DNA of 28,932 nt from the IMG/VR virus record IMGVR_UViG_3300020021_000042, positions 1-28,932 of that record. One strand, given 5' to 3'. Position numbers and translations under genes: made by a program. Shown one piece after another: positions 6,792 to 23,720 of this stretch. This DNA comes from a virus. Under the pieces are notes generated by a model that was not told the DNA's origin, did no database searches, and worked only from the letters and a program-made list of their open reading frames with translations. Every line of letters begins with the position of its first letter. Within the stretch, counting starts at the first letter, position 1.

Positions 6792-6883
6792 TGCCACACC
6801 TGCACACAATAGAAGTTGCAAGTCCCAACTGGCCTTGTACCGGTGAAGAATAGCAGGGTAAAGAGGATGCAGATAAATCTCAT
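6788..6883 (-). CDS. 31-aa hydrophobic mini-protein, possible signal or membrane peptide
   Basis: Reading from the ATG at 6883 gives 31 codons ending in TGA at 6788. The product begins MRFICILFTLLFFTGTRPVG, a basic residue followed by a strongly hydrophobic core, then a short cysteine-containing tail (CNFYCVQVWQ). The ATG sits in an ATGA overlap with the stop of the SGNH gene, and its TGA sits in a GTGA overlap with the next gene, so it fills the interval exactly like the other coupled genes. No convincing Shine-Dalgarno sequence is visible. It could be a true small membrane peptide, a leader coupling translation to the next gene, or chance. Confidence 0.45.
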   Translation of the reverse strand: MRFICILFTLLFFTGTRPVGTCNFYCVQVWQ

Positions 6884-8580
6884 GGCCAACTCGCTTCAAA
6901 AGCGTCCCTGAAATGACCCATTCCTGTGTCGTTCGGGTGTAGAGAATTCGACATATCGGTTGTTGAATTTACGTAGCTTCGCACGGGAACAAACGCAATA
7001 TTAAGGCCGTCTCCGGATAAAGTCGTAACGTCAGCCGACACATCTGCGTTATAGGCCGAAGTCGCCGCGGAATTTGCATCACTTTGCTGGTAAGGAACGC
7101 CACCAGCGAGAACCTTACAACAAGCATTCGCTGTCGGAGGAGTGCCAATACCAGCAATGGAAACGGCGCTCGCATTTGTTGTAGTAAAGAGAACAGTGTG
7201 ACTTCCCGCCGCCACACCAGTGATGCGGATAAAGCCTTCCCCATGCGCTCCTCCGTTCTGCGTAGCAATCGCTGGAGAGGTCGTGTTGTTAATCGACGTA
7301 GTGCTCCCGCCATCAAGCGCATAGGTAAAAGTACCTCCGCAAGAGTCGCAAAGCCTATACCATGCGTATATCGGGCCTCCAGTCGTTGTTATCGTACAGG
7401 ACAGGGTTTGGCCGCTACCTGATACGATACGCCCAATACCCGCTCCATAGGATGTATCAGGAGCCCATGAACCACTTGCCGTACAGGCCGAGGCATATTT
7501 CTTAGAGGCCGAAGGCACGGCGAGCCATGAAAGAGAGGCGTTCAGACATAAGTTATAGACCGCTTCGTAACTTCCTGCGCCCTTCGTGTTTGCGTCGTTT
7601 GTTCCTATCATCTCTGTGTAAATAATATTTTGCGAACTTATTGGAGTTTCGAGAGGAAAAACCTGCGTGTCTGCCATATCGCAGGAAAGCTGCCCAGAAA
7701 CACCGCGATTGATGAGTTGAATGCCTTTATCGCTGGAAATAAGATTAACATACCGGTTTGAAGTGCTGCTTGCATTCTGCCCAGCGGTAATACTGTCTCC
7801 CATCGCATGAAGAGCGGGTAACCCTGCCGGAGCCCCAATAGATCCCCCTTGAACCATCTGGACCGGGGCATGATTGCCGCGTTTTGGTCCTGCCACCGTA
7901 AGTTGTAAATGGTTTGGACTCCAATCCATTTCATTGGTCGTATTACCGTAAAGCGGAGCGTACAGAAGGAGAAAGGCTGATCGGATTTGAAGTGGTGACG
8001 CCCCGCGCCATAACGCCGTTATCTCATTGGGTGACAAGAGCTGGCCGTTCCACACCGCGAACTCTGCTATTCTGCCGTTAAACGCCCTGTCCAGACCGTT
8101 CCGATTTCCAATGTTAAATGATTGGGTGGGAATAGATATCGTGCCAACCGGGGTCGTTGCGGTCGTAACGCTTTGCGAAACCCCATCAACATATATAAGC
8201 GGGACATTGCTAGTCGATGCACCATCATAAGTGACGGCCAGATGATGCCATACCGAACTGGACGGAGCTGTGATAGTCCATACACCGACTGTTGTTGAAA
8301 AACCAACCGCGAGAGTCATCGTCGTCCCGGAACTTGTAAATTCAAACTGATAGTTCGACCCGGATTCAGGGTTGAAATCATAGATTCTTGGTGATGAATT
8401 CTGCGATTGAGTTGCATTTGAAAAAATCCAAACCGAAACGCTGATCTGTTGCGGCCACGATACGTTAGCGCTAACTATCCTGTCGTTCACCCCTGTGCCA
8501 CATGTTGAGTTAAAACACCGCGCCGCTTGCGCCTGAGAAGCTAGACAGCAAAGCACCAGAATGAGGAAAATGTTTCTCAC
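6880..8580 (-). CDS. LamG-like plus SGNH hydrolase tail protein with Sec-type signal peptide
   Basis: 566 aa from a GTG at 8580 that overlaps the previous TGA (GTGA); an upstream ATG at 8628 exists but would bury the signal peptide. Residues 1-19 (MRNIFLILVLCCLASQAQA) look like a Sec signal peptide. A LamG/concanavalin-like domain spans about 40-195 (WHHLAVTYDG, IYVDGV, GRIAEFAVWNGQLLS). An SGNH esterase domain follows: block I GDSITAG with Ser263, the NRGVSGQ block, IGTND with Asn328, and near the C-terminus NSLHPND with His548. The usual DxxH catalytic pair reads NxxH here. Between the third and fifth blocks lies an inserted beta-rich domain of roughly 100 residues. SGNH enzymes often deacetylate polysaccharides, so a role in removing host surface acyl groups is inferred. 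Confidence 0.8.
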   Translation of the reverse strand: MRNIFLILVLCCLASQAQAARCFNSTCGTGVNDRIVSANVSWPQQISVSVWIFSNATQSQNSSPRIYDFNPESGSNYQFEFTSSGTTMTLAVGFSTTVGVWTITAPSSSVWHHLAVTYDGASTSNVPLIYVDGVSQSVTTATTPVGTISIPTQSFNIGNRNGLDRAFNGRIAEFAVWNGQLLSPNEITALWRGASPLQIRSAFLLLYAPLYGNTTNEMDWSPNHLQLTVAGPKRGNHAPVQMVQGGSIGAPAGLPALHAMGDSITAGQNASSTSNRYVNLISSDKGIQLINRGVSGQLSCDMADTQVFPLETPISSQNIIYTEMIGTNDANTKGAGSYEAVYNLCLNASLSWLAVPSASKKYASACTASGSWAPDTSYGAGIGRIVSGSGQTLSCTITTTGGPIYAWYRLCDSCGGTFTYALDGGSTTSINNTTSPAIATQNGGAHGEGFIRITGVAAGSHTVLFTTTNASAVSIAGIGTPPTANACCKVLAGGVPYQQSDANSAATSAYNADVSADVTTLSGDGLNIAFVPVRSYVNSTTDMSNSLHPNDTGMGHFRDAFEASWP

Positions 8581-9650
8581 TGGAATTGCTCGAACCAGTT
8601 GCAGGAAAGAGTCTGAGCAAGCGTCCATCCTGTGGTATTAAACGTTATCGCTACAACGGAAACGCCATCAGAAGCGGGAGATGGTGTAAGTGGAGTTGCC
8701 GTAAGAAGATAACCGCCAGTGGTGGTGATCGAAAGACTGGTTTGTGTTTCGCCAGTTAAACTCGCCGCCGAAGGATCAGAGCCCGAATTAACGATGGCAT
8801 CACTAGTGGTGTACTTGGCTGTACCACTTCCCGCAGCCGCTTGACATAAAGAAACAAGATTAAGCGTACCGCTTGGCGGCAAAACATGCGGCAAGAGAAA
8901 TCTGCCTTGGAGCACAACATTTGATCCCAGCGAAGCGACCACGCCCCAACCAGGCGAAGCTGGGGATACGTTTCCGCCAGTCCCAATATAGGTATTAGGA
9001 AATAGATTTCCGCCGGTATCAGTCGTTGTTAATGAAAGCGGCAAAATGCGTGGAGATAGATTTGCCGAGGTCACAACTCCAGAAGTCGTGGCCTGAAGAT
9101 ACCCGGCCCCTTGACCACTGATAGCAAAGGCGTTCGCCGTAACGGTCGTAAACAAGGCACTCGAAGATGTCGTAGCCCCAATTGTCGTTCCGTTGATTGT
9201 ACCACCAGTTACACGAGCGGTAGCAATCGTGGTCGTTCCGTTCAGAGCAGCGTTGCCGTTGTCGGTAAACGAAGTGGTGGTGATTCCAAGGATGGAGGTC
9301 AGGCCCGTCGAGGCGTTGTAAGACCACGGCGAGCCGACATCGACGTAAACTGTCGAGGCCGCCGCGGAGGTACTCGTGGCAAACAAGGGCCGGTAGGTCA
9401 CGTTCGATGTGGTGGCTGCTATCGCAACCGAGCCTCCCCCACCTCCGCCGGTCGCAGAGATCACGCCACCGCTGATCGTAACCGTGCTGCCGTCGACCTT
9501 GACGCAGCCAGAGACAGTCGTGGACGCCGTCTTGCAGGCAGTAGGCGCATTGCTTCCAAACGGACCGCCGCCCGTGAACGGGCCGTTCTGCGCTAATGCA
9601 GGCGTGGCGAATAAAAGACTTAAAGCGAGGACGGCGATCCGTGTTTGCAT
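8577..9650 (-). CDS. Tail fibre-like protein with signal peptide
   Basis: 357 aa starting at ATG 9650. Residues 1-20 (MQTRIAVLALSLLFATPALA) form a clear Sec signal peptide with an ALA-Q cleavage site. The rest is low-complexity, Thr/Ser/Gly-rich beta-repeat sequence typical of phage fibres (GNAALNGTTTI, VTGGTINGTTIGATT), with a glycine run near residue 70 and a compact C-terminal domain from about 220 (SPGWGVVASLG, LVSLCQAAAGSG). GNAALxGTT also occurs in the 562-aa fibre upstream, so the two share a module. No enzyme motif is recognised. It may be a receptor-binding fibre; the signal peptide is unusual for a virion protein. Confidence 0.75.
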   Translation of the reverse strand: MQTRIAVLALSLLFATPALAQNGPFTGGGPFGSNAPTACKTASTTVSGCVKVDGSTVTISGGVISATGGGGGGSVAIAATTSNVTYRPLFATSTSAAASTVYVDVGSPWSYNASTGLTSILGITTTSFTDNGNAALNGTTTIATARVTGGTINGTTIGATTSSSALFTTVTANAFAISGQGAGYLQATTSGVVTSANLSPRILPLSLTTTDTGGNLFPNTYIGTGGNVSPASPGWGVVASLGSNVVLQGRFLLPHVLPPSGTLNLVSLCQAAAGSGTAKYTTSDAIVNSGSDPSAASLTGETQTSLSITTTGGYLLTATPLTPSPASDGVSVVAITFNTTGWTLAQTLSCNWFEQFQ

Positions 9651-11688: not shown

Positions 11689-14600
11689 CTACTTCGCTCC
11701 CGACAGCGTCTTTAACTTCTCACTTACCGCATCTTTCATGATCTGCGGGTTTTGCATCATAACGATATTTCTCGCGGTCTCACGGGATGATTCGATGATA
11801 CCTTTGATTGTTTCGATCTGAACCCCGGCCGGGATAGTGGCGAAACCGGCGGTGCGGACAACCGCGTTAAGACGCTGCTTTGCCATGCGCCCTGCAAGCC
11901 TCGAATAGTCATCATATTGCTGATCTGTAAGTTCGCCACCGCGGATTTTCTTGCCTAGCTGCCCAACCCCGATTTGCAACGCTTCCATACGCTGGACAAC
12001 GGGATCGTTGGCGTATTGTGGCAGTGGTGCTCCATTGGGAATGGGCTCGCCAAATCGGTCACGGCGTGGCATGAGAGCCTGCGAGGCATATGGAACCTTT
12101 GCCCATGCGGCATCGATAATGCTGTGGGTTTGCCTTTGATCGGGATCTACTTCACGGGCCACCTGAGACATACCAACCGACAATGGCAGCCAATTAGTCA
12201 CAAATTGTTTGATATAGTTGGCCCCATATTCATCGGGATGATAGACCGCATCGAGCAAGTCCTTGACCCCTCTCATGAAGTTTTCATCGAGCACGCTTTT
12301 GCTAAGACCTTCAACGAACGACATGGCAAGTTTGCCCCCGTTCTCCCCATCCCATCCCCGCGCCGTCTCTGTCATATTCGCCGAGAAGCGCATGAGCATC
12401 CCGAGGTGCCCAAGACCCTGATAGGGAATGGTGATATCCCCAATCTGGACGCTATTGGGACGATGATTAAGCAGCCAGATTGCACGTTGTGCCGGATCGG
12501 TTGGGCCATCTCCCGTAGCATTTCCTTCGAGCGTCATAAGCGCCGTGGTCGCCATGAGGGACGTACCGACCGCCATCTTGCCAAGCTGGGTATCCCGCGC
12601 AGCACCACCGTTGTCACCAAGGACATTTGCCCTCACATCCTTGTCCAGAAGGCCAAGAGGCGTCCGCTCGATAAAAGCGTTGCGTGTGATCTGACTGCCG
12701 ATTTTCATAAACGGAACGATAATCTTGGCGGCCAGATTGCTGTTGATCGCCCGGTTGAGCGCTCCCATCGTGCTGTTGTATTCCGTGGGAGACATGTAGA
12801 GTTCGCGCAACGCCCCGGAGGTCGCTTCTTTCATCATGGCCTCTGTTGGGTTTACGCCGAGATCAGCAACGCGCGCCGCGAACGCCTCGTCCTTCAGTCC
12901 TTCCTGCATTGCTTGCCGGTAGGCCAGCGCCTGAATGTTCTGTTCATAGCGCAGCGACTTGAAGAAACTATGGATGGCGGCGACCGACTTGGTGGGTACA
13001 TTGAGCACTTTCCCTGCAAGCCCTGGGATGGCATTCACCTTCGTTGTGTCGGCAAAGTTGCCGCTCAGATGCTCACCCGGCAGCGCCGGGGAGATCCCTG
13101 TCTTGAATGCCGTGGCTGCCGCATACAATCCATCCCGAGACCCCTTGAAGAGGCCGTGAAGTTGCGCCGCAGCCTCGCCCAAGTAAACCCTGTCCGCATC
13201 GCCACGGACGGTTCCGACAGCAGCTTGAAAAGGGATTTCGACCAATGGTGTCGCCAGCGCATTGATCGCGTTGCCAACAGAATAACGCAAATGGGTGATT
13301 GGCCCAGAAATCAAAGCATTGATATAATATTCCAGCACCATATCGCGGAAGGTGGCTTTCTTCGAGGCATCGAGGAACTTCGCCACCTGTCCTGCGGATT
13401 GCAGGTTCTTCCCAAACTTCATCTCCTGTTCGAGCTGGAATAGATCCTTTCCAGTGGCCTCTTTGAAGAAATCGCCGAGAGCTTTTGCATCGGTGAATCC
13501 CTCCAACTTCCGGAACGCACCGAGGGCACGACCGGCTTCAGCCGTGATTCCGGCGACATGCTCCTGGATCATCAAGTGACGTTCTTTCGCCTCCGCATAT
13601 GCGGCAACATCGTTGCCGTTCATGAGGTTGCGGACTTCGACCGCCGATTTTACCAAAAGCTTACGAGCTGCAATAATTTGCTCCGCATTGAAGGCCTGCC
13701 CGATTTTGCGGAAATTCAAGTCCCACGGGTTCATACCGAGCGCATCGGCAAGGTTCAGTTGCTCTCCAGCAGGAATAACGCCGCGGCGTGCCTCCATGAA
13801 ATCATTGTTCTCGCTAGCTGTCTGCCTGAGAACCTCATTCACATCAGCGGGAGTATTCAGATTGTCGAGCCTGATGTTGCCGGCCTTGTCTACGAGGGCG
13901 GACTTGGGTCGTCCGAGGATGGTGTTGGGTCCGGGGCCGGGCTCGGGTCCGGCGACGGGTCTTGGCTCTGGAAGTGGACGACCGCCTTGTGCCGCAGCTT
14001 CACCTCCGCGTTCGCCGACCGGCTCAGATTGCGGAATAGGGATACCTTCTCTGGGTGCTGGTCCGGGCGATCCGCCAACTGCTGGAGATTGGTCGCTATC
14101 CCCTGGGCCTCGCCCAGCCTCACTTGCGGTAATTGCATTGCTTGCCTCCTCGTCCTGTTTCGCGGTCGCTTTCATTTCGGCACGGATGTTGTCTGCCACT
14201 TCCGCCGCATGCTCGGGCGGCGTGTGCTCGGCATCGGCCTCATGGATATCTGCCAACATCTTACCGGGTTCGTGATCGGGGGTGATGACCGTTTTCTCCG
14301 GCTTGCTCGACAGCAGCCGGTCGAACACGTCGCGGATGTCATTGGTGATGGGGGAGCGTAGCCGATCCACAGTCTTGTAGAGTTGGACCAGCCACTGCCT
14401 GAATTTGGCGAACACCCCAGCCAAGGTCTTGCTGGGGGCGGTGCCTTCCATAAGATAGCGCTCGAAGCCGCGCGCCCATTTCTCATGCTGCTTGCGCGGG
14501 ATCTCTGCACCGTCTTCCACGCCAAGCCATTTACGGACGGTCGCGGCATCGCGCAGCAGTCCGGCGGGCGCATCTGGTGCCGCAGCATACCGCATCATCT

Positions 14601-17514
14601 CGTCGAGCCAGTGATGGCCGGTTTCATGAATGAATGTGGAGGCGTTCGCTGACTTCATCAGCGTAATGGCGGCTTTGGCGTCGTCAGTAGCGAGGCGGAT
14701 TTTTCCGCGAGCGGATTGGGCCAGCTCTACGGCGTCGGAGTATCGTTCATCACGTTCCGATTGAGGTTGTCCACCAGGGCTTGACCGATCTTCTTCGTGT
14801 ACTCGTCGATCCGCGCCTGCATCTCCGGCGTGTGCATCGGCGAAGCCGTTGTAGGTTTGGTCTGAGATTGTTCCGTTGACTCTTTGCTCATCGAGTGCCT
14901 TCCTTACGCTCTCGTATGTATTATCATGGATAATCCTTGATAAATCGTCAAGGGGGATCTGTTTGGCTCCATCTTTACCGTATCGGTTGTCAATCACCTG
15001 GATGGTAACCCTATGATCATCTTTGTACTTCTCGGCAATCGCCTTGATCGTCTCAAGCGACCCGTCGTGAGTCGCAGCGTGCTCACCAATGGGGACTGTG
15101 CGCCCACTGCCAAACTTCTTCTCTTGGCGCGTGGCACGAGGGAGCGCCCCATTGACTAGAGCCTCGATTGGATCACGGTAAACATAGGTGATGTTAACAG
15201 ACTTTCCAGCCGCCAGTGCTTTATCGATTTTCTCTACCGAACCATCCAACCAGTTCATGTTCGAGTCGTAGACGATCTGAGCACGATCAGCCAACTCCCT
15301 CACGGCAGGAATATTGGCAATAGCATTAGATTTACCAGCCCCCGTGCCCCCGGCTGTGAATTGGACAAGATCAAGTTTATCGCCGGTTGCTTTTTCCTTC
15401 AGTTTTTCGTCATAAAGCTTCCTGATGAACCAACTGGCCGGCTCCTGTACCGCAGACGATTTGGTGCGGTCCCGGAGATAGTCTTCCGAAAGCTCGCGCG
15501 CGCTATCGGTATTAAGAACTGTCCCACCCTGCGTTTCCGGTAGTTTACTATATTCCTCCACCGCCGCGTCAAAGTTGTTTCCAACCTTTTCGGCAAGTTT
15601 AGATTCAATCTCATGGTCAGCTTGGCTCAAACGTCCGTCACTGGGAATCTCGCCATCCGGGGTCTGGGCAAACTCTGGCTGTTTATCGAGTTCGGCCCCC
15701 TTGACTGCATCTTGAAACTGCACAGTCAACTGTTTGCCGTCTTCGCCCACGACCCCGTTAAGGCCCTTGTGCGGTTCCTTGGTGTACACCTTGCTGACGC
15801 CAGTAACATCAGGCTTGCTGACGAGGCGATACGCGCCGCCATCATCTCGGCCAAGCACGAGCAGGTTCTTTACGAACCCGGCATCAACGATGTTTCCCGG
15901 AGCCCATTCCTGGGTGGTGATACCGCGCAATCTGCGTTGCTGGGCTTCGACCCCGACAGCCTCGCCATATTCCTTGCGAGAGGTATCAGCCCTCCGCTTG
16001 ACAGCATCCGCGTCCACTTTCTTCGAGAAATCATCCCAAGAAATACCAGTCGCATCAGCACCACGCCCGGCTTTGATCTGCGCACCGTCCCGCGCATAGA
16101 TTTCCTCTGGCGTGCCCTTGGCCCAGCCTTGTTCGGCAACGGCTTTGTAATGCTCGGCCACGAGCTGCGCCGCCGCGTCAGCTTCTTCCTTCGGCCTGCC
16201 AGCGGCGATGAGCTTCTGGCTGACATCATCGGCAATGTCCGTGGGGGGAGCTTCGACCGGCGCTATTGGTGCAGTTGGCTCCTGCGACGCCTCGGAAGAC
16301 GTTGGAACGGTCTGGACAACCGGCGGTGCGGCCACCTCGGGCTCGACCGGCTCCGGCAGTCCTTCCTGTGCCTTCCGATAGGCTGCGGATACGTCGGGGG
16401 CCAGATCGCGCATCTGGTAGTCTGTTTCTTGCAGCTTCGTGCGAACCGCCGCCATCTCCGGCGTGTCGCCTTCGTTGAGAATTGTGTCTCGCTTCTCCTT
16501 CAGCGATTGCAGTTTTCCATAGCCACCCTGTTTGGCCTGCTCTATCGCTGCGATTTGAGAGTCGATATCGGCGGTGCGCTGCAATCCAAGATCACTCAAC
16601 TGGCTACGCAAGGTATCGCTTTGGGCGGTGAGCCGGTCATAGGCCTGCATAGCTTCAGGCGCTGCCGCGCGTGCGAGTTGATGAATGTCCGGGACCGGCG
16701 CGGGTTGCGCCTCGGGGGGCATCGGTGCGGCTTCCGGACTGGGCGGCAGAGAAGCTGCGGCTGCATCGCGCGCGGCCGCGTTCTCCGGCGTCGGTTCGGC
16801 TGTGCCGAAATATCCAGCCTCACCCTCGCCTATGACCCCAAGGCTCCGCGCCTTTGCGACCTCGACAGGTAACCGAGCGCTGGGAATATGTCCGCCACCA
16901 CCCAAACCGAACTGGGACTCCGGCGTCGCAGCGATGTCTCGCGCGAGTTGGGCTGTACCAGCGCCGTAAATCTGCGGCGCACCAGTCTCAAGTACCGTTT
17001 GATGCAAAAAAGCCTGACCACCTGCGAATAACGCGCCACCTGCGCGATATGCCGCATCCATCGCGGTGGCAGCCTGACGCACCAAGGCCTCGGTAATGCT
17101 CTTCCCGAAGTCTTTCTCACCGCTCATGTAATCGTTAAAGATACCAGCTTCTCGCAAAGATTTCTCGGTATCTCCACCCACTTGTATGGCGGGAACACCC
17201 CCTTCCTTCAGAGCGTCGGCGGCACCCCCCATAAAGCTGTCGGCGATCCGGCCTGCGGCAGTATTCTTGAAGAAAGCGTCCACGGCGGGATCGGGTGACG
17301 TTCGGAATGTGGCAATATCACTGGCCTCTGCACCGACAGCGCCCAAAGTCGTAACGCCCCCCTGATAAAGACTACGTCCAACCCTAGCTGCGGTAGATGT
17401 CCAAGATGCTGGGTTACTTTTTACGGCATCATCCCAAGTCGGAAGCGAACCATCTGAAGGAGGTAATGGCGGTTGCGCTATCGCTTCATCCCAAGTTGGC
17501 AGGCCATCGCTCAT
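11689..17514 (-). CDS. Giant gp16-slot internal virion protein: polyvalent protein with P-loop kinase/zeta-toxin-like and HExxH metallopeptidase domains
   Basis: 1941 aa. The N-terminus carries two copies of LPTWDxA (residues 5-11 and 24-30). Residues 1-430 are Ala/Pro-rich with helical stretches. A P-loop domain spans about 680-870: Walker A GGTGAGKS at 722-729, then ITYVYRDPIEALVNGALPRA, resembling zeta-toxin/polynucleotide-kinase-like folds. A metallopeptidase domain spans about 930-1070: HETGHH with H963, E964 and H967, and FERYLMEG whose E1018 could be the third zinc ligand. A Pro/Gly-rich linker (about 1140-1200) leads to a long C-terminal region (about 1380-1900) resembling the domain shared by large phage polyvalent proteins (LPD38-like). 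It occupies the T7 gp16 slot, so ejection into the host envelope is inferred. It starts in an ATGA overlap with the gene upstream. Confidence 0.85.
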   Translation of the reverse strand: MSDGLPTWDEAIAQPPLPPSDGSLPTWDDAVKSNPASWTSTAARVGRSLYQGGVTTLGAVGAEASDIATFRTSPDPAVDAFFKNTAAGRIADSFMGGAADALKEGGVPAIQVGGDTEKSLREAGIFNDYMSGEKDFGKSITEALVRQAATAMDAAYRAGGALFAGGQAFLHQTVLETGAPQIYGAGTAQLARDIAATPESQFGLGGGGHIPSARLPVEVAKARSLGVIGEGEAGYFGTAEPTPENAAARDAAAASLPPSPEAAPMPPEAQPAPVPDIHQLARAAAPEAMQAYDRLTAQSDTLRSQLSDLGLQRTADIDSQIAAIEQAKQGGYGKLQSLKEKRDTILNEGDTPEMAAVRTKLQETDYQMRDLAPDVSAAYRKAQEGLPEPVEPEVAAPPVVQTVPTSSEASQEPTAPIAPVEAPPTDIADDVSQKLIAAGRPKEEADAAAQLVAEHYKAVAEQGWAKGTPEEIYARDGAQIKAGRGADATGISWDDFSKKVDADAVKRRADTSRKEYGEAVGVEAQQRRLRGITTQEWAPGNIVDAGFVKNLLVLGRDDGGAYRLVSKPDVTGVSKVYTKEPHKGLNGVVGEDGKQLTVQFQDAVKGAELDKQPEFAQTPDGEIPSDGRLSQADHEIESKLAEKVGNNFDAAVEEYSKLPETQGGTVLNTDSARELSEDYLRDRTKSSAVQEPASWFIRKLYDEKLKEKATGDKLDLVQFTAGGTGAGKSNAIANIPAVRELADRAQIVYDSNMNWLDGSVEKIDKALAAGKSVNITYVYRDPIEALVNGALPRATRQEKKFGSGRTVPIGEHAATHDGSLETIKAIAEKYKDDHRVTIQVIDNRYGKDGAKQIPLDDLSRIIHDNTYESVRKALDEQRVNGTISDQTYNGFADAHAGDAGADRRVHEEDRSSPGGQPQSERDERYSDAVELAQSARGKIRLATDDAKAAITLMKSANASTFIHETGHHWLDEMMRYAAAPDAPAGLLRDAATVRKWLGVEDGAEIPRKQHEKWARGFERYLMEGTAPSKTLAGVFAKFRQWLVQLYKTVDRLRSPITNDIRDVFDRLLSSKPEKTVITPDHEPGKMLADIHEADAEHTPPEHAAEVADNIRAEMKATAKQDEEASNAITASEAGRGPGDSDQSPAVGGSPGPAPREGIPIPQSEPVGERGGEAAAQGGRPLPEPRPVAGPEPGPGPNTILGRPKSALVDKAGNIRLDNLNTPADVNEVLRQTASENNDFMEARRGVIPAGEQLNLADALGMNPWDLNFRKIGQAFNAEQIIAARKLLVKSAVEVRNLMNGNDVAAYAEAKERHLMIQEHVAGITAEAGRALGAFRKLEGFTDAKALGDFFKEATGKDLFQLEQEMKFGKNLQSAGQVAKFLDASKKATFRDMVLEYYINALISGPITHLRYSVGNAINALATPLVEIPFQAAVGTVRGDADRVYLGEAAAQLHGLFKGSRDGLYAAATAFKTGISPALPGEHLSGNFADTTKVNAIPGLAGKVLNVPTKSVAAIHSFFKSLRYEQNIQALAYRQAMQEGLKDEAFAARVADLGVNPTEAMMKEATSGALRELYMSPTEYNSTMGALNRAINSNLAAKIIVPFMKIGSQITRNAFIERTPLGLLDKDVRANVLGDNGGAARDTQLGKMAVGTSLMATTALMTLEGNATGDGPTDPAQRAIWLLNHRPNSVQIGDITIPYQGLGHLGMLMRFSANMTETARGWDGENGGKLAMSFVEGLSKSVLDENFMRGVKDLLDAVYHPDEYGANYIKQFVTNWLPLSVGMSQVAREVDPDQRQTHSIIDAAWAKVPYASQALMPRRDRFGEPIPNGAPLPQYANDPVVQRMEALQIGVGQLGKKIRGGELTDQQYDDYSRLAGRMAKQRLNAVVRTAGFATIPAGVQIETIKGIIESSRETARNIVMMQNPQIMKDAVSEKLKTLSGAK

Positions 17515-19559
17515 TCAACCCCCGTAGGGACCTTCGGAGCCGAATCAATTCTGACAAGACCCAGGCTCTCAGCTTTGGCGCGACCTTCTTCCTCGGAGAT
17601 TTTGCCTGAGTGAACATCGGATATTATGCCGCCGAGCGTCGGCGTAGCCGCTGCATCCGGGGCCATACCCCCGGCATCCAGCATCATGTCAGAAAGCTTC
17701 TCGTTCATCCCCCGCTTGAACTGCGGAATCAGCTTACCGACGTAATCCGGGCTGTCGGGATTAAGAAGTTGCGTTGGCGTCTTTCCAGCCTCTCTGCCTT
17801 GCTGGTAGGCCGGAACGGCAGCGCTCATGAATTTGAGGTATAGCTCTTCACCCTTCGGATCCTTGATGTGCAAAAGCGGGTCAGAACCGGATATCTGGCT
17901 TTTCGCCACATCGAAAAATTGCTTCTTCATTTGCGCTTCGGCGTCGCCCTCCGGTGTGTTGCGCCCCGCGAGTTCCTTGCGAAGTTGTTCGTTGCCTTCA
18001 AAGCTAATGCCGTGACCGACATAAGGGATGAGATCGTCAGTTTTCGTAATGCGATTTGGATCAGTCGGATCGGCATGGATGCGCTGGAAAAGATCGTTGA
18101 ACACGGCGGGATCGGTCTGCGCACCGCGCTCCGCTACCGAATGCAGCATATTCAAGACCGTCTGCTTCTTCTCGAAAGTCAGAGTAGGATCATTGATCAC
18201 CGTCTGCGGGTCGAGTTTCTGCTGATAGGCAGCGGTCAGCATCCCATTCATCGTCTTTTCCTGAGCCTGATCCAGAGCCTGCTTTTGCTGACTCAAATCC
18301 TGCGCATTTCGGATGACGGCTGTGTGGAAAAGCTCCGGCACCTTTTCGGGCGGTATGAAATCCGTCCAGTCGTTCGATACCGGTTGAACGCCCGTGTTGT
18401 TGATTGTCTGACCGAGTAAAGTCTGACGGGAGGCCCACCCTGCCGCCGACGCGCCATATTTGCCGGGGTTCATCTGCACCAGATGCTGATAGGCCGCCGC
18501 GCGCTCCGCGAGCAGTGCATTCGGGTCACCATCGGCTTTGGCAATCATGTCCTGTGCGACCGGAACACCAAAATTAACGGCCGTGTCGAAAGCCGCGAGG
18601 CGCATGTTGGCGGGAAGATTGTCTGCGCCAATCGCATCCCAGTAATTCTGTTTGTAGATCGCCGCAGCCTTGTCGGGCAAGAGATTTGCGACTTGTTGAG
18701 GGGTCAGGCCATTATCGGCAGCCACGATGCCATATTTCGACGGCCCGCGACCGTTGTCATTGGGCACCAGATGGTCGCCCTCGAATTTGTTCATCACGAA
18801 ATTGATCGCCGAATCTGCGTCAGCGGGAGCATTGGCGTTCGCCGCTTGCGCATCCGGAACAGCTTGCGCAGGTTTGCCCTGCATACGGTCCATCATGGGT
18901 TGAAGGACGCCAAGCGCCTGGGCCGGCGGCATGTAATTCACCCGCGCTACGGCGAGCTGCTGGGTGACTTTCTGAAGCCCCAGCGTCGCGTGCGCCTGAT
19001 CCATTCCACCGGCCTGCACCGTAGCTTGATAGGCTCCCTGAATATTCTGGAGTGACTGCTGGGTCTGCGTCGGATCGCGCAGCGCCACGCTGATTTGATC
19101 GTTCGTCAATTGGTCGAGGCTCGAAAGCGCGGCGTCCTTTGACTTCGCAGCGACCATCGCCTGCACACGGCGCTCACCGGGCGCAAAAGCTGTCTTAGTT
19201 GCCCAAGACTGAAACAATGAATTGTGATATGGATTCTCGACCTGCGCAGAATTGTCCTTGATAATCTGCTGCATTCCATCTTGGTATTTTTGCGGAATCG
19301 AAGCGTAATCGGGGTCCTGTGCCAGTTGCTCCATCAGCGCCTGTTGTTGCGAGGCCACTCCGGCTTGCGCATAGCGCATCTGGAGAGTTCCTTGATAGTA
19401 ATCGTTGCGGTTCAGTTGGTCGCCGAGCTTCGCAACTTCACCGCCAACACCTGCCAAAGCTTCGGCAGGAGCCGATGCATCGGCCAGGGGCACGTCCACG
19501 CCTGCCTGCGGTTGGGGAGTGACCTGACCGAGATCTTCGAAGCTTGGAAGGCGAGCCAT
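17511..19559 (-). CDS. gp15-slot internal virion protein with GH108-like lysozyme domain
   Basis: 682 aa, close to the 747 aa of T7 gp15. The start (MARLPSFEDLG) is a common opening for phage internal virion proteins. Residues about 248-385 match the N-acetylmuramidase family GH108: NKFEGDHLVPNDNGRGPSKY with the probable catalytic Glu260, then YKQNYWDAIGADNLP and AAFDTAVNFGVP. The flanks are helical and Gln/Ala-rich, as expected for a core protein. Peptidoglycan cleavage during genome entry is inferred; in T7 the equivalent activity sits in gp16. The ATG shares one base with the preceding stop (TAATG). Confidence 0.85.
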   Translation of the reverse strand: MARLPSFEDLGQVTPQPQAGVDVPLADASAPAEALAGVGGEVAKLGDQLNRNDYYQGTLQMRYAQAGVASQQQALMEQLAQDPDYASIPQKYQDGMQQIIKDNSAQVENPYHNSLFQSWATKTAFAPGERRVQAMVAAKSKDAALSSLDQLTNDQISVALRDPTQTQQSLQNIQGAYQATVQAGGMDQAHATLGLQKVTQQLAVARVNYMPPAQALGVLQPMMDRMQGKPAQAVPDAQAANANAPADADSAINFVMNKFEGDHLVPNDNGRGPSKYGIVAADNGLTPQQVANLLPDKAAAIYKQNYWDAIGADNLPANMRLAAFDTAVNFGVPVAQDMIAKADGDPNALLAERAAAYQHLVQMNPGKYGASAAGWASRQTLLGQTINNTGVQPVSNDWTDFIPPEKVPELFHTAVIRNAQDLSQQKQALDQAQEKTMNGMLTAAYQQKLDPQTVINDPTLTFEKKQTVLNMLHSVAERGAQTDPAVFNDLFQRIHADPTDPNRITKTDDLIPYVGHGISFEGNEQLRKELAGRNTPEGDAEAQMKKQFFDVAKSQISGSDPLLHIKDPKGEELYLKFMSAAVPAYQQGREAGKTPTQLLNPDSPDYVGKLIPQFKRGMNEKLSDMMLDAGGMAPDAAATPTLGGIISDVHSGKISEEEGRAKAESLGLVRIDSAPKVPTGVE

Positions 19560-20197
19560 TACTGCATCATGTTGGAATCAAAAGGACTGGCGTATCGGGA
19601 GAACATCGACCTGGAGCCGCTAAGAACCGTTGATAATGCCTTTGCGTTGTCGGTATAGTCGGCGGTCTCGCCCTCGTAATTATCCATCGCACCTTGTTGT
19701 TGCAGCCGAGCCGCCTGCGCATTGCCGTTGTAGAGATCGGTGAGCGAATTGAATTCACCTTGTCCTGCTATGCTCTCTGCATTTGTCTCCACGCTTGGAT
19801 CGTCGACCGAACCGCCGCCAGCGGCAGCTCTTGCGCGATTTTGCGATAACATGAGGTTGGTCTGCCGCTGACGGGCAAGATACGTTCTCTGCGACGATGC
19901 TTGCGCTTCATCCGCCGCAGCATTGGCAACCTGCTGATTGTATTTGCCAGCCATACTGGCGGCATCGCCGGCTCCGAGTTGCTGAAGGGCGCCAAAACCT
20001 GTGCCGGCGATGCTAAGGAGGTTTCCTATCGAAAAGAAACTCGAACCCGCTGCGGCGAGCGGCGCTGCCACGGCCGGAGCGGCAAAAGTCACCCCTGCTC
20101 CAGCGGCGGCGGCACTGGCAGCCGCCTCTGTTCCAAAAACTCCGGCGGACTCAGTCCCGAGAGCTGCGGCGGCTTCGCCTATCCCAAAATCAGGCAT
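19559..20197 (-). CDS. gp14-like internal virion protein
   Basis: 212 aa, near the 196 aa of T7 gp14. The N-terminal half (to about residue 70) is Ala/Gly-rich and hydrophobic, compatible with membrane insertion after ejection. The second half is helical and polar: KYNQQVANAAADEAQASSQR, LARQRQTNLMLSQNRARAAA, then GGGSVDDPSV, a pattern typical of this family, in which a helix with an RQ-rich stretch precedes a G-rich VDxxS motif. It lies between the GNAT-like genes and the gp15-slot gene, exactly where T7 has gp14. It probably forms the outer part of the ejected channel. It overlaps the upstream gene by eight bases. Confidence 0.8.
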   Translation of the reverse strand: MPDFGIGEAAAALGTESAGVFGTEAAASAAAAGAGVTFAAPAVAAPLAAAGSSFFSIGNLLSIAGTGFGALQQLGAGDAASMAGKYNQQVANAAADEAQASSQRTYLARQRQTNLMLSQNRARAAAGGGSVDDPSVETNAESIAGQGEFNSLTDLYNGNAQAARLQQQGAMDNYEGETADYTDNAKALSTVLSGSRSMFSRYASPFDSNMMQ

Positions 20198-20651
20198 TCA
20201 GCACCTTTGAATAAGTCGTGGACTGAGGGAAATAGCCAATACGTTCGAGCAGACTTCCGAAATTCACGAGCTTCGTGACGTGAAAATCCATCTCCCCGGC
20301 ACCAGCCTCCTTGGCAAACTTCTCGGCTGCCGCGACGAGGCCGCGCCCGATATGCTGGTTTCTCCTGTCCGGCTTGACAAAGATCGAGTCGCAGCTGGCC
20401 TTCTTGAAACCCTTGTGATGAAGTTTATTGGTAATAAAGATCGTGCAGTATCCGATGAATATGCCATCGTCGCGAGCAGCTATGCCGATGACAATCCCTT
20501 TGTCTTCCAGAACCTTATATGTTTCGATATCGGGGATTGGATTGATGGACTTCAAAAAGCCGTGACCAATTTCCTTCCACGCCTCGGTTGCCGCGGCGAT
20601 CATCCCGGCATCCCAAGTATCTGATTTCTCTATCTGGAATGTGACGGCCAT
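20190..20651 (-). CDS. GNAT-family acetyltransferase-like protein
   Basis: 153 aa. The core has a GNAT layout: a strand with DGIFIGYCTIFIT, then CDSIFVKPDRRNQHIGRGLV, where the R/Q-x-x-G-x-G/A acetyl-CoA loop is recognisable as RNQHIGRG, followed by a helix (AAAEKFAKEAGA) and a C-terminal LERIGYFP motif. It lies in a TAATG overlap with the related gene upstream and directly before gp14, so it may be packaged or only co-expressed. The acetyl-acceptor is unknown. GNAT genes at this spot occur in other podoviruses, some as internal virion proteins. Confidence 0.8.
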   Translation of the reverse strand: MAVTFQIEKSDTWDAGMIAAATEAWKEIGHGFLKSINPIPDIETYKVLEDKGIVIGIAARDDGIFIGYCTIFITNKLHHKGFKKASCDSIFVKPDRRNQHIGRGLVAAAEKFAKEAGAGEMDFHVTKLVNFGSLLERIGYFPQSTTYSKVLNA

Positions 20652-21019
20652 TAGTTCACCCGGTAAAGAACGTGACCGTCCTCCGCTTGCACTATCTCAA
20701 AGCCGAGACTTTGCAGGAATTTCTCCGATTTATCTATACTCGTATTTAGTTGCGTAATCAACGGAAGACCTTTGCCGAGCATCTCATCGAGTATGTACTT
20801 CGCGGTGCGCCAGATTTTAATAGGCGAAGCTTTCAGGCCCGGCCTCACATCACAGAACGCAACAAACCCTGCCTCCTCAAATGCAATGCCAGCTATGCAG
20901 GATGGTTCGCCGCGCCAGAGAGCAATCCAGGCCTTCACGCTAGGCCGAACGTCCCGCCCATAGAAGGCCTCCAAATCGGCGCTATCGGCCCGTCTGACTT
21001 CAACGTCCGGCGGCAACAT
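20651..21019 (-). CDS. GNAT-like protein in the gp13 slot (internal virion protein A-like)
   Basis: 122 aa, similar in length to T7 gp13 (138 aa). It has an N-terminal VRRADSADLEAFYG segment, a hydrophobic strand region (IAGIAFEEAGFVAFCDVRPG), and a C-terminal KFLQSLGFEIVQAEDGHVLY; this matches the GNAT-like fold of gp13/DUF2833 proteins. The acetyl-CoA loop (R/QxxGxG/A) is not evident, so it is probably a structural or degenerate GNAT. It starts in a TGATG overlap with gp12. A role in ejection or assembly is inferred from position. Confidence 0.7.
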   Translation of the reverse strand: MLPPDVEVRRADSADLEAFYGRDVRPSVKAWIALWRGEPSCIAGIAFEEAGFVAFCDVRPGLKASPIKIWRTAKYILDEMLGKGLPLITQLNTSIDKSEKFLQSLGFEIVQAEDGHVLYRVN

Positions 21020-22800
21020 CAGGCGCTGTCGTTGGTGATGACGGATACCGTCACGCCAAGTATATTAGCAGGTCGTGGAGAAGCGGAATACAAACACAAA
21101 CGCGCGTCAGTGGACCAGTCTCCACCAACGCTAAATCCATCGCGATCATATAAATCCCAGACCGTATCTGGATCAACAGGTGCTCCGTCTTCCACGCTCG
21201 GCATGTCGTAAAGATCGGCATCATCAAGACTGCGCCCCGCACGAACGCCCTTGCAATGTGTGTCGGCCAATAAAAGCCCGATGTAGTTCAGATACTTGCG
21301 CTGATTCAGAGCTGTCCCGAGTGCGGCACCATAGGATAGCTTGGTCCCCTCGAACTCCGCATCGTAGAAAAGTCCCACGACCGCATCCGATACCGCCGAA
21401 GGCAGCGTGATTTGGCCACCGGAGACCAGATAACTCGTCGGCACGCCTTTACTCACCAGTGGGCTGAAATCCTTGCCATCTGCCCAAACCACAACCTGCA
21501 TACCATTGAGGCGATCAAGGCCCGTGATGACGGTGGTTGGCGTATCGCTATGGAAGATGACAAAGCTATCGGCCTGCTTGTTCAGCGTCCCACCGACACA
21601 TTCACTGGCAAGCGCCCATTTCTCCAAACTCCGCTTGGTCACCCCGTTCAGGACACGCGCCACCGAGTAGTAAACAACGTCCTCGACCAAGCCAGGCATC
21701 ACGATCACATCTTCGATGCTTCCAGCGGTGTCGATATCGATGATGCATTTGACTTCCTCAAGCTTGTCGTAAACCAACACGAAGGCCGTGCCATCGTTAA
21801 GAATGCAATGAATGCGGGTATCAGGACGACGCTGAAGCGCAATCCGTTTGATGCCAACAGCCCCGGCTTCCGGGCAAAAGATCGTCAGGTCTTCGACAGG
21901 ATAGCTTTGGTAAATATTGTCATAGGACGCCGAAACTAACCTCGTGCCGCTCCGGTCGACAAACACAACTACCGTCTCGATCTTCACCGCCTGTACGGGT
22001 GCCGAACCCATATTCGACGGCGAGCGGATATTATTATTGGTGGGAGTGATGGGGGCATCGAGGGCATCGGAGAACAGAAAGTGCTCCGCCATCTCGCCGC
22101 CCAACGCGAACCGGAGCAAATCAACGAGCCAGTTGATGCGATCGACGGGGCCTGATCCGATGCTCCTGTTGATCGGGCCTGCATCGCCTATGACCGAATC
22201 GTCATAGCTCTCATAGCCATCGGAGACCGATCCGATAATCCTGTCACGCCCCGCCCACCACAGGCGCCCCTCATTGAGCTTGACCGCTGTCGGAAATCCT
22301 CGCCGCGTCGACCATTGGCCTTCGTCCCAGTCAGATGTCCCATCGGTTCCTCCAAGGTTCTTCAACACATTGGCGGCAACCAACTTGGTGTTAACGAAAC
22401 CCGTCACCCTGACGATACCCGCCAATGATCCAGAGGAATAAGTGAGCACCACCGCTGCCGTACCGGATGTGTAGTCCCCTGTATTGAACCCAATCCGGTA
22501 GAAAATGATCTGATTGTCCAAACCGTCGTTATAATCCGTACTGGAGGAGTAGGTCCCATTGTCTACCCATGCCCCAACATCGCCGACGCTGCGTTGCAGG
22601 GTGAGCGTTCCGACATAGGTTCCGGAAATACCAATGCTGAATTTCCTCTGGTCGCCCACTCCGGTGACCCTGATCGGATCGGTGTACTGACCCTCCCCAC
22701 CGAGGTCTGCTTTGACGATCTGGCCCGTGCTGTTAAGCCGGAAGAGGCTGCCAACATGATCAATAGTAAAGAACGGCGCAGAACTTGCGAGATTGATGTC
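21019..22800 (-). CDS. Tail tubular protein B (gp12-like nozzle), C-terminal part, in the -1 frame
   Basis: This part continues gp12 after a frame change. Reading from about 22800 gives DINLASSAPFFTIDHVGSLF, then FRLNSTGQIVKAD, a sequence that continues the typical gp12 pattern. An ATG at 22659 gives 546 aa on its own, but the homologous-looking stretch starts about 47 codons upstream with no canonical start close by, so the whole protein needs the upstream ORF. It includes YNDGLDNQIIFYRIGFN, DWDEGQWSTRRGFPTAVKLN and NEGRLWWAGRDRIIGSVSD, which are characteristic of podovirus nozzle proteins. The end overlaps the next ATG (TGATG). See the companion entry for the N-terminal part. Confidence 0.8.
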   Translation of the reverse strand, partial: DINLASSAPFFTIDHVGSLFRLNSTGQIVKADLGGEGQYTDPIRVTGVGDQRKFSIGISGTYVGTLTLQRSVGDVGAWVDNGTYSSSTDYNDGLDNQIIFYRIGFNTGDYTSGTAAVVLTYSSGSLAGIVRVTGFVNTKLVAANVLKNLGGTDGTSDWDEGQWSTRRGFPTAVKLNEGRLWWAGRDRIIGSVSDGYESYDDSVIGDAGPINRSIGSGPVDRINWLVDLLRFALGGEMAEHFLFSDALDAPITPTNNNIRSPSNMGSAPVQAVKIETVVVFVDRSGTRLVSASYDNIYQSYPVEDLTIFCPEAGAVGIKRIALQRRPDTRIHCILNDGTAFVLVYDKLEEVKCIIDIDTAGSIEDVIVMPGLVEDVVYYSVARVLNGVTKRSLEKWALASECVGGTLNKQADSFVIFHSDTPTTVITGLDRLNGMQVVVWADGKDFSPLVSKGVPTSYLVSGGQITLPSAVSDAVVGLFYDAEFEGTKLSYGAALGTALNQRKYLNYIGLLLADTHCKGVRAGRSLDDADLYDMPSVEDGAPVDPDTVWDLYDRDGFSVGGDWSTDARLCLYSASPRPANILGVTVSVITNDSA

Positions 22801-23720
22801 GCGGTAAAGACGATGCTTTGATTGATGTTCCCTACCATGAACGGGCCATCAATTGGCAGGAATTGGGCGATTGACCATGATCGCGGAGCGCGCCGCTCGA
22901 TCTTCAGCTGCTGATAGCCCTTGGCTCCCCGCTTGTCGCAGGCGAGATAGACCACGTCAGCCGACTGGTCACAGCGAACCAGATCAAGATCGCCGAGGGC
23001 GTAGTTCGTCGGCAGGGTCATGGCCCCGGCCCCCTCGATCGCAACGCTGTCGATGAGACACGAGTTTGTGGTGTGATTGGAGAATTGGAGATAGAAATCC
23101 CCGGAAGGGGAAAAGACCAGTGAATGGGTGCCGGCGCCGATAGTCGTCTCCGCGATATATTCGTCTCCGCCGCTGGTTGATCCAACCCGAAGAACAGTGT
23201 CGTTGCGCTGCACCACAATGCGAAGGGCGTGCTCCACGCCTGCCTCGTTCACCGTAACTTGCTGAGTGACTATGGCGCTGTTCGAGCCGTTCCCTACCAG
23301 TTGCAGGAAGCCTCCGCTCCCGCCGTAGTTCGTCCAGTTCGAGGTAGCCCCCGCCTCGTCCGAGATCATCCAGCCAACGATATCTGTTGTGAATGTCCCG
23401 TTCGTGATGACGGCCGTAACCGCAGGTCGTGTGATAATGGCTTCATTCACACGCACGCGAAGCAGCATATCGGTGAACTCAAATATCGCCGTGTCATCGA
23501 GACTATAGATAAACGGGAGATAATAGGCTTGAGCATCGTTGTAACTGCCGTCGATGTAGCCCCAACCTGGACGGAGCATCGATGAACCAAGGGTGCGGGA
23601 AATAAAGTTACGCTGGACGAATGCGGAGAAAGGATATCGTTTTAGGTCAACACGGGCGAGGCCAAGCTTGGACAGTCGCCCCCGGTTGAGAGCAAGAATT
23701 GTCTTATTTTCCAGAGACAT
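22563..23720 (-). CDS. Tail tubular protein B (gp12-like nozzle), N-terminal part, interrupted by a frameshift
   Basis: 385 codons from ATG 23720, two of every three plausible: residues 1-307 look like gp12, whereas the rest (SISQVLRRSLLLIMLAASSG onward) is the wrong frame. Early residues (NRGRLSKLGLARVDLKRYPF, then RPGWGYIDG) are typical of nozzle proteins. Residues about 105-232 are a carbohydrate-binding-like jelly-roll insertion (NGTFTTDIVGW, LQLVGNGSNSAIVTQQVTV, HSLVFSPSGDFYLQFSN). The frame changes at 22800/22801, where the code reads ACC GCG ACA in this frame and GAC ATC AAT in the -1 frame. A joined product would be about 900 aa. Cause unknown: mutation, sequence error or recoding. 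Confidence 0.8.
   Translation of the reverse strand: MSLENKTILALNRGRLSKLGLARVDLKRYPFSAFVQRNFISRTLGSSMLRPGWGYIDGSYNDAQAYYLPFIYSLDDTAIFEFTDMLLRVRVNEAIITRPAVTAVITNGTFTTDIVGWMISDEAGATSNWTNYGGSGGFLQLVGNGSNSAIVTQQVTVNEAGVEHALRIVVQRNDTVLRVGSTSGGDEYIAETTIGAGTHSLVFSPSGDFYLQFSNHTTNSCLIDSVAIEGAGAMTLPTNYALGDLDLVRCDQSADVVYLACDKRGAKGYQQLKIERRAPRSWSIAQFLPIDGPFMVGNINQSIVFTATSISQVLRRSLLLIMLAASSGLTARARSSKQTSVGRVSTPIRSGSPEWATRGNSALVFPEPMSERSPCNAASAMLGHG

What the first reader, a model, noticed from the sequence alone, without database searches (positions are those of the whole stretch)
11689..17514. Ejected-protein slot carries a P-loop kinase/zeta-toxin-like domain plus an HExxH peptidase
The gp16-slot protein joins, in one 1941-aa chain, a Walker A (GGTGAGKS, residues 722-729) domain similar to zeta-toxin-type kinases, a HETGHH metallopeptidase (963-968), and a large C-terminal phage polyvalent domain. 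If it is ejected like T7 gp16, these activities would enter the cell with the first DNA and could act on host cell-wall precursors, nucleotides or defence proteins, or trim the internal core proteins. Polyvalent phage proteins are known, so this is a specific combination and location rather than a new class.
Basis: partly seen in the sequence, partly recalled or inferred. Interest (0 to 1): 0.8.

Follow-up and report, generated by a model that had tools for sequence, protein, structure and literature searches.

The report
Swappable toxin slot in phage ejection protein
A large phage protein that is probably shot into the bacterium ahead of the DNA carries a cell-wall-precursor kinase in what looks like an exchangeable cargo slot, framed by a conserved marker segment and a protease-like domain; the idea of injected multi-enzyme phage proteins is known, but this slot and this kind of kinase in it were not found described.

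Summary
The reading is correct but lies on the minus strand: one intact 1941-aa ORF (11689-17514) with GGTGAGKS at 722-729 and HETGH at 963-967. The P-loop module (about 629-891) is a zeta-type kinase, specifically the topologically rewired subfamily of gonococcal ng_zeta1 (profile E=3e-31 over the whole module; AF2 pLDDT 94.6; Z=28 to 6EPH against 11 for classical zeta). Its catalytic Asp, Lys and two Arg are invariant in 75/75 relatives. HExxH and a downstream Glu are invariant in the zincin-like domain, whose fold was not confirmed. The C-terminus is homologous to 'internal virion protein D' of several T7-like phages, not detectably to T7 gp16 itself. New here: in 35 related ejection proteins a ~57-aa 'adaptor' and the HExxH domain bracket a slot that is either empty (<=30 aa) or filled with 112-1452 aa of exchangeable cargo (ADP-ribosyltransferase, GNAT, unknown; zeta here). 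The same bracket occurs on unrelated BPP-1 Bbp10-type scaffolds (RNase, ART, zeta). Most likely: a virion-borne, ejected UDP-sugar kinase, possibly freed by the neighbouring protease. Polyvalent proteins with zeta and zincin domains are published (PMC5512222), so this is a new variant of a known kind. Ejection, substrate and proteolysis are inferred.

The parts
11689..17514 (-). gp16-slot polyvalent ejection protein, 1941 aa
   Evidence: Intact ORF; starts in a 4-nt ATGA overlap with the upstream gene
16264..17514 (-). N-terminal part, aa 1-417 (contains LPTWDEAI/LPTWDDAV-like start motifs)
   Evidence: P0001 aa 1-484 (this part plus the adaptor) has homologues in 27 of 29 gp16C+HExxH relatives by blastp; about 31-38% identity
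16063..16263 (-). adaptor element, aa 418-484, immediately upstream of the slot
   Evidence: HMM found in 35/36 gp16C+HExxH ORFs and 87/96 of all HExxH ORFs after iteration, 0 hits in 480 shuffled sequences, none of 81 zeta ORFs lacking the HExxH domain
14734..16062 (-). variable cargo slot, aa 485-927
   Evidence: Absent in relatives L104, L115, L120, L122, L096 and others; slot length 5-1452 aa, bimodal, in 30 complete distinct relatives
15634..16062 (-). domain X of the cargo, aa 485-627 (function unknown)
   Evidence: Shared with L114, where it precedes an ART-PolyVal domain, and with L132, whose slot also holds a GNAT match
14842..15630 (-). ng_zeta1-type rewired zeta kinase module, aa 629-891
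   Evidence: Pfam PF06414; hmmsearch to 6EPH E=2.9e-31; AF2 pLDDT 94.6; VIA Z=28.0, rmsd 2.1 over 250 aa to 6EPH
15505..15507 (-). D670, predicted general base (= ng_zeta1 D56)
   Evidence: Invariant 75/75; aligned to D56; role in PMC5923241
15328..15351 (-). Walker A GGTGAGKS, aa 722-729 (K728 = ng_zeta1 K115)
   Evidence: G722, G725, G727, K728 invariant 75/75
15136..15138 (-). R793 (= ng_zeta1 R175)
   Evidence: Invariant 75/75; aligned
15100..15102 (-). R805 (= ng_zeta1 R181)
   Evidence: Invariant 75/75; aligned
14248..14718 (-). HExxH zincin-like (MPTase) domain, aa 933-1089
   Evidence: phrog_9880 6.5e-50; HExxH 95/95; invariant H38, E39, H42, H85, E86, E93 columns in 77 sequences
14614..14628 (-). 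HETGH, aa 963-967
13900..14154 (-). Pro/Gly-rich linker, about aa 1121-1205
   Evidence: pLDDT mostly <50 across aa 1124-1201; sequence
11695..13881 (-). gp16-slot (internal virion protein D-type) C-terminal region, aa 1212-1940, predicted all-helical
   Evidence: phrog_6651 internal virion protein 5.4e-26; tblastn to ProddE, P60, S-CBP42 and other internal virion proteins D; BFVD structural matches to internal virion proteins
17511..19559 (-). gp15-slot protein with GH108 muramidase domain (682 aa)
   Evidence: Pfam GH108 1e-12; phrog_315 endolysin 4.4e-22
19559..20197 (-). gp14-like internal virion protein (212 aa)
   Evidence: phrog_418 1.1e-17

Best explanation
The gene encodes a virion-borne, ejected delivery protein built as [N-terminal ejection part]-[adaptor]-[cargo slot]-[HExxH zincin-like domain]-[linker]-[gp16-slot C-terminal scaffold]. 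In this phage the cargo is an unknown domain X plus a rewired ng_zeta1-type kinase. Proposed sequence: the protein is packed as part of the internal core, travels into the cell envelope and cytoplasm with the first DNA (inferred from gene order and homology to internal virion protein D), the zincin-like domain next to the cargo cuts the chain and frees the kinase (inferred), and the kinase phosphorylates UDP-activated sugars at the 4'-OH (inferred from ng_zeta1), draining peptidoglycan and LPS precursors early in infection and so halting envelope growth. Shown here: fold and subfamily of the kinase, intact catalytic residues under strong conservation, the slot and its exchange. Inferred: ejection, proteolysis, substrate, benefit to the phage.
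For: Kinase: hmmsearch of the 75-sequence profile finds 6EPH/6EPG/6EPI (ng_zeta1) at E=2.9e-31 over the whole module; AF2 model pLDDT 94.6, pTM 0.91; VIA Z=28.0 over 250 aa to 6EPH, 11.7 AvrRxo1, 10.8 classical zeta 1GVN, 9.2 polynucleotide kinase. The D-block lies before the P-loop, as in ng_zeta1's topological rewiring (PMC5923241). Catalytic D56/K115/R175/R181 equivalents invariant 75/75. Slot: among 30 complete distinct relatives slot length runs 5-1452 aa, 13 at <=30, 17 at >=100, none between; it accounts for total length (r=0.96); flanks align in 27-29 of 29, domain X in 2, zeta in 0. Cargo elsewhere: ART, GNAT, LPD3; ART, PBECR RNases, RelA/SpoT, GNAT, zeta in the Bbp10-type group. Virion context: gp14-like and GH108 gp15-slot genes directly upstream, same order in BPP-1 and UFJF_PfDIW6; zeta is a separate gene between gp15-slot and virion structural genes in L020 and L029, with the same order in L012. 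Zincin-mediated processing proposed for polyvalent proteins and P1 DdrB (PMC5512222).
Against: No proteomics: presence in the virion and cleavage are unproven. Two ng_zeta1 residues that contact the lactyl group of UNAM differ: K59 is R673 (R in 73/75) and N75 is S686 (S in 62/75, A in 12/75), so UNAM may not be the preferred substrate. The HExxH domain has no Pfam match and neither fold nor profile search confirmed a zincin fold. N4 vRNAP, TraC1 and ArdC carry such domains yet are packaged or transferred uncut (PMC5512222). T7 gp16 itself shows no detectable sequence similarity.
Confidence: 0.6

Rival explanations
1. The kinase is active but acts on another small molecule (NAD or nucleotides, AvrRxo1-like, or a nucleotide defence signal) rather than UDP-sugars; it counters host defence or reshapes nucleotide pools.
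For: The second-best structural neighbour is AvrRxo1 (Z 11.7), reported as a NAD kinase (PMC5923241 introduction); the UNAM-contacting residues K59 and N75 are changed; co-occupants of such slots include nucleotide-acting domains such as RelA/SpoT and ART.
Against: Z=28 to ng_zeta1 is far above AvrRxo1; the whole rewired topology and the catalytic tetrad are those of ng_zeta1.
Confidence: 0.25
2. The module is a resident effector or toxin of a lysogen (addiction or superinfection exclusion) made in the host cell rather than delivered from the virion.
For: Solo copies of the same module occur next to terminase and portal genes in other phages and on bacterial contigs; ng_zeta1 is a TA toxin (PMC5923241).
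Against: Here it is fused inside a structural protein of the late operon between ejection-protein segments; no dedicated antitoxin gene is apparent beside it, and domain X also accompanies an ART, so it is not a zeta-specific antitoxin.
Confidence: 0.1
3. The kinase and HExxH domains no longer act as enzymes and only fill space or help the internal core to assemble.
For: Empty-slot relatives show that the scaffold works without cargo; many huge phage proteins have cryptic domains.
Against: Walker A intact 86/86, HExxH intact 95/95, D/K/R/R invariant 75/75 across sequences as little as 24-31% identical to the window.
Confidence: 0.08

Closest known systems
ng_zeta1 toxin of Neisseria gonorrhoeae (PDB 6EPG/6EPH/6EPI; PMC5923241)
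   Same: Whole-module profile match, rewired order (Asp block before P-loop), catalytic D/K/R/R, 3D fold Z=28
   Different: About 20% identity; here fused in a phage ejection protein without an apparent epsilon antitoxin gene or OB-fold domain; two UNAM-contacting residues differ
Polyvalent proteins (Iyer et al. 2017, PMC5512222)
   Same: Large multi-enzyme chain with a zincin-like peptidase; zeta-toxin-like kinase is already listed among their domains (in conjugative elements and fused to phage MuF); delivery with DNA proposed
   Different: Here on a T7-like internal virion protein D scaffold; the adaptor/peptidase-bracketed slot with empty and filled states, and the ng_zeta1-type identity of the kinase, were not found in the sections read
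Bordetella phage BPP-1 Bbp10 and relatives (phrog_9880)
   Same: Same gene order after gp14-like and lysozyme genes, same adaptor, same HE[ST]GH domain; slot holds PBECR1 RNase; relatives L026 and L058 hold zeta there instead
   Different: C-terminal scaffold not detectably related to the window's (hhalign probability 3%)
Internal virion protein D of T7-like phages ProddE, P60, S-CBP42, pelagiphages
   Same: C-terminal ~500 aa homologous, same synteny
   Different: The matches do not extend to the zeta and HExxH modules, and ProddE's protein has no HExxH or Walker A pattern; T7 gp16 itself not detectably similar

Membership tests
ng_zeta1-type (rewired) zeta kinases | Sequence profile match along the whole kinase domain | tested here: met
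   hmmsearch E=2.9e-31, profile 9-265 of 267
ng_zeta1-type (rewired) zeta kinases | Rewired topology: catalytic-Asp block N-terminal to P-loop, same 3D fold | tested here: met
   D670 precedes Walker A 722-729; model aligns from end to end with 6EPH, Z=28.0, rmsd 2.1
ng_zeta1-type (rewired) zeta kinases | Catalytic D56, K115, R175, R181 | tested here: met
   D670, K728, R793, R805, invariant 75/75
ng_zeta1-type (rewired) zeta kinases | UNAM-contacting K59 and N75 (a substrate feature, not one that defines the fold) | tested here: not met
   R673 and S686 in this protein; this lowers the claim that UNAM is the substrate, not the claim of subfamily by fold and catalytic residues
ng_zeta1-type (rewired) zeta kinases | 4'-phosphorylation of UDP-sugars | not testable with these tools
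   needs enzymology
ng_zeta1-type (rewired) zeta kinases | Operon partner epsilon antitoxin | tested here: inconclusive
   No small partner gene is apparent beside the ORF; neighbours are lysozyme and tail genes; an unrecognised antitoxin cannot be excluded
Classical epsilon/zeta (PezT) zeta toxins | P-loop followed by the catalytic Asp block in sequence | tested here: not met
   Asp block precedes P-loop; Pfam match covers only profile 94-185 of 199
Polyvalent proteins | Several biochemically disparate domains in one chain | tested here: met
   Kinase, HExxH domain, ejection scaffold
Polyvalent proteins | Packaged and delivered with the DNA | not testable with these tools
   Only synteny and homology to internal virion proteins
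Zincin-like metallopeptidase (MPTase of polyvalent proteins) | HExxH plus Glu on a following helix | tested here: met
   HExxH 95/95; invariant HE (col 85-86) and E93 columns on a later predicted helix
Zincin-like metallopeptidase (MPTase of polyvalent proteins) | Zincin fold | tested here: inconclusive
   Weak model in this part; no fold match; Spartan/SprT only E about 1
Internal virion protein D (gp16-slot) family | Homology to annotated internal virion proteins D and position after gp14/gp15-type genes | tested here: met
T7 gp16 | Detectable homology to T7 gp16 itself | tested here: not met
   hhalign probability 0.2%; no match among PDB sequences

The most novel reading that the evidence does not exclude
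The adaptor plus HExxH domain form a portable delivery cassette, a phage counterpart of the marker-then-toxin layout of polymorphic toxins: any cargo placed between them is packaged, ejected and cut free. It has been grafted on at least two unrelated ejection-protein scaffolds and is loaded or empty in different phages, here with a UDP-sugar kinase.
Probability: 0.45. Interest if true: 0.75.

Novelty: new variant of a known kind. Interest (0 to 1): 0.55.

Why it matters
If right, podovirus-type ejection proteins have a defined docking place for exchangeable enzymes that act in the first minutes of infection, with natural empty and loaded versions that make the role of the cargo directly testable. 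It also moves the gonococcal-type UDP-sugar kinase from a plasmid toxin-antitoxin curiosity to a widespread phage virion effector candidate (68 viral contigs found in one scan), and gives a sequence marker (adaptor + HExxH) for finding new early-acting phage effectors, most of which in these slots have no Pfam match.

Tried and rejected
Close relatives of the full protein by single-sequence scan of IMG/VR: none; alignment-based scans were needed. Combined alignment of kinase and HExxH domains for one fold job: MAFFT misaligned the kinase-only rows, so two jobs were run. Structure of the HExxH + C-terminal part: pLDDT 73.9, no informative PDB match; this is absence of evidence only. T7 gp16 homology: not found. 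C-terminal scaffolds of the two groups: not related by hhalign (3%). Foreign-DNA signature of the kinase segment: GC 0.505 against 0.548-0.608 in the flanking protein domains, but its GC3 is unremarkable (130 of 1675 windows as low), so not used as evidence. Tree of the kinase: 74 rows, the window's place unresolved (no starred set holds it); the Bbp10-type kinases do not form one group, which fits repeated exchange but the backbone is weak. Strong hydrophobic transmembrane segments in the chain: none above the threshold used. Domain X as a zeta-specific antitoxin: rejected, it precedes an ART in L114. Literature: no paper in the library holds both 'internal virion protein D' and 'zeta toxin'.

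Full report
OBSERVATION. The window is a whole 28,932-base virus record. The finding's coordinates hold one intact ORF of 1941 aa on the minus strand. The start codon overlaps the stop of the upstream gene in a 4-nt ATGA. Upstream lie a 682-aa protein with a GH108 muramidase domain, a gp14-like internal virion protein (phrog_418), a GNAT and a phrog_308 internal virion protein; tail tube, capsid and a probable scaffold lie further up. The order gp14-like, lysozyme, giant protein, tail fibre or spike is that of BPP-1 and UFJF_PfDIW6.

THE KINASE. Pfam calls residues 743-839 Zeta_toxin above its cut-off but only over profile positions 94-185. The reason is a rearranged order: the conserved block GG..LNTD.AREL..Y (D670) lies before, not after, the P-loop. 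I gathered 68 viral and 19 cellular contigs with the same module; in an alignment of 75, Y655, G664, D670, G722, G725, G727, K728, K762, A766, P782, R793, G804 and R805 are invariant. The profile matches the solved ng_zeta1 toxin of N. gonorrhoeae over its entire length at E=2.9e-31. That enzyme is described as topologically rewired, with two sequence blocks swapped, and as a kinase of UDP-sugars at the 4'-OH that lyses E. coli when expressed (PMC5923241). The AF2 model of residues 626-895 (pLDDT 94.6) superposes on 6EPH with Z=28.0, rmsd 2.1 A over 250 residues, against Z 11.7 for AvrRxo1, 10.8 for classical zeta and 9.2 for polynucleotide kinase. D56, K115, R175 and R181 of ng_zeta1 correspond to D670, K728, R793 and R805. 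Two UNAM-contacting residues differ (K59 to R673, N75 to S686), so the exact sugar is open.

THE HExxH DOMAIN. Residues 933-1089 match phrog_9880 and hundreds of viral contigs (556 in one scan). HExxH is intact in 95/95 and an HE plus E pattern on a later helix is invariant, as described for the zincin-like peptidases of polyvalent proteins (PMC5512222). No fold search confirmed the zincin fold, so this stays supported by conservation only.

THE SLOT. In relatives with the same HExxH domain and the same C-terminus the N-terminal homology stops at residue about 484 and resumes at about 933. In 30 complete distinct relatives the intervening length is 5-1452 aa: 13 are empty (<=30), 17 filled (>=100), none between; N-terminal part, adaptor, HExxH domain and C-terminus vary far less, and slot length correlates with total length at r=0.96. 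L104 and L096 show the empty state next to 55% and 61% identical C-termini. Cargo pieces are reused in different slots (L131/L132 66%, L118/L127/L137 about 60% identity), and Pfam sees ART, GNAT and LPD3 in some. The segment in front, about 57 aa with consensus QSRQAIADDVAEQLVAAGRPPEEAEAAAALVAARYETRAARLGGTPEELYRREGLQI, was found in 87 of 96 HExxH ORFs after iteration, in none of 81 zeta ORFs without the HExxH domain, and in none of 480 shuffled sequences. No Pfam family was reported in enough members to be this element. On the Bbp10-type scaffold, whose C-terminus is not detectably related, the same bracket holds PBECR1 RNase in BPP-1, zeta in L026 and L058 (57% and 52% identical to Bbp10 downstream), zeta plus an ART match in L040, and elsewhere other PBECR, RelA/SpoT and GNAT domains. 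In L020 and L029 zeta proteins are separate genes between the gp15-slot gene and a virion structural gene (phrog_684), and L012 has the same order. Among the 36 gp16C+HExxH ORFs sampled only the window carries zeta.

MECHANISM. Most likely a packaged and ejected chain whose cargo kinase acts on envelope precursors in the cytoplasm. Ejection is inferred from gene order and homology to internal virion protein D of ProddE, P60, S-CBP42 and others and structural matches to such proteins; a precedent for huge polyvalent-type proteins in podovirus particles is the 4515-aa DarB-like gp69 of JC1, found by mass spectrometry (PMC9144972). Release by the HExxH domain is plausible from its place directly after every cargo and from the published proposal, but some such proteins are packaged or transferred uncut (PMC5512222). 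What the phage gains (weakened wall, stalled growth, altered LPS against superinfection) is speculation.

WHAT IS KNOWN AND WHAT IS NEW. Polyvalent proteins with zincin domains, and zeta-like kinases among their domains, were published in 2017. Mosaic exchange of the lysozyme domain between ejection proteins is also known (PMC8954989). New, as far as the held literature shows: the kinase belongs to the rewired ng_zeta1 type and is common in phage structural loci; and the cargo place is a sharply bounded, bimodal slot framed by a definable adaptor and the HExxH domain on two unrelated scaffolds. Hence new variant of a known kind. Limits: relatives were capped at 80 per scan and chosen by similarity to these domains, so frequencies are not population estimates; no host is known; nothing here shows activity.

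Noticed in passing
21019-23720 (-): Tail tube B is split over two overlapping ORFs (phrog_376 positions 10-196 and 241-711), suggesting a frameshift or an assembly error.
   Followed up: no
20190-20651 (-): A GNAT acetyltransferase gene sits between gp13-like and gp14-like internal virion protein genes; an acetyltransferase-annotated gene lies in a similar place in MW202801 (L003).
   Followed up: no
6880-8628 and 1378-5235 (-): Probable receptor-binding or depolymerase proteins: one with LamG-like and SGNH-esterase-like (MGDSITAG) stretches, one 1285-aa tailspike with a GH16-like ELDILEQ motif (by eye).
   Followed up: no
L032, L041, L045-L047, L049-L056, L059-L068: Solo 300-363 aa copies (up to 400) of the rewired zeta module; in those inspected (L032, L045, L050, L064) they stand next to apparent terminase and portal genes, possibly a second mode of use.
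   Followed up: partly
L084, L086-L091, L093: Solo rewired-zeta genes of about 260-360 aa on Acidobacteriota contigs; possible antitoxin partners were not examined.
   Followed up: no
L008 4414-6969: Moraxella lincolnii plasmid DUF5710 protein carries a distant copy of the module, near a Fic/VbhA pair and an LPD7 gene.
   Followed up: no
slots of L108, L117, L118, L123, L127, L133, L137, L098: Large cargo regions (543-1452 aa); those scanned singly have no recognisable Pfam enzyme, candidates for unknown early effectors.
   Followed up: partly
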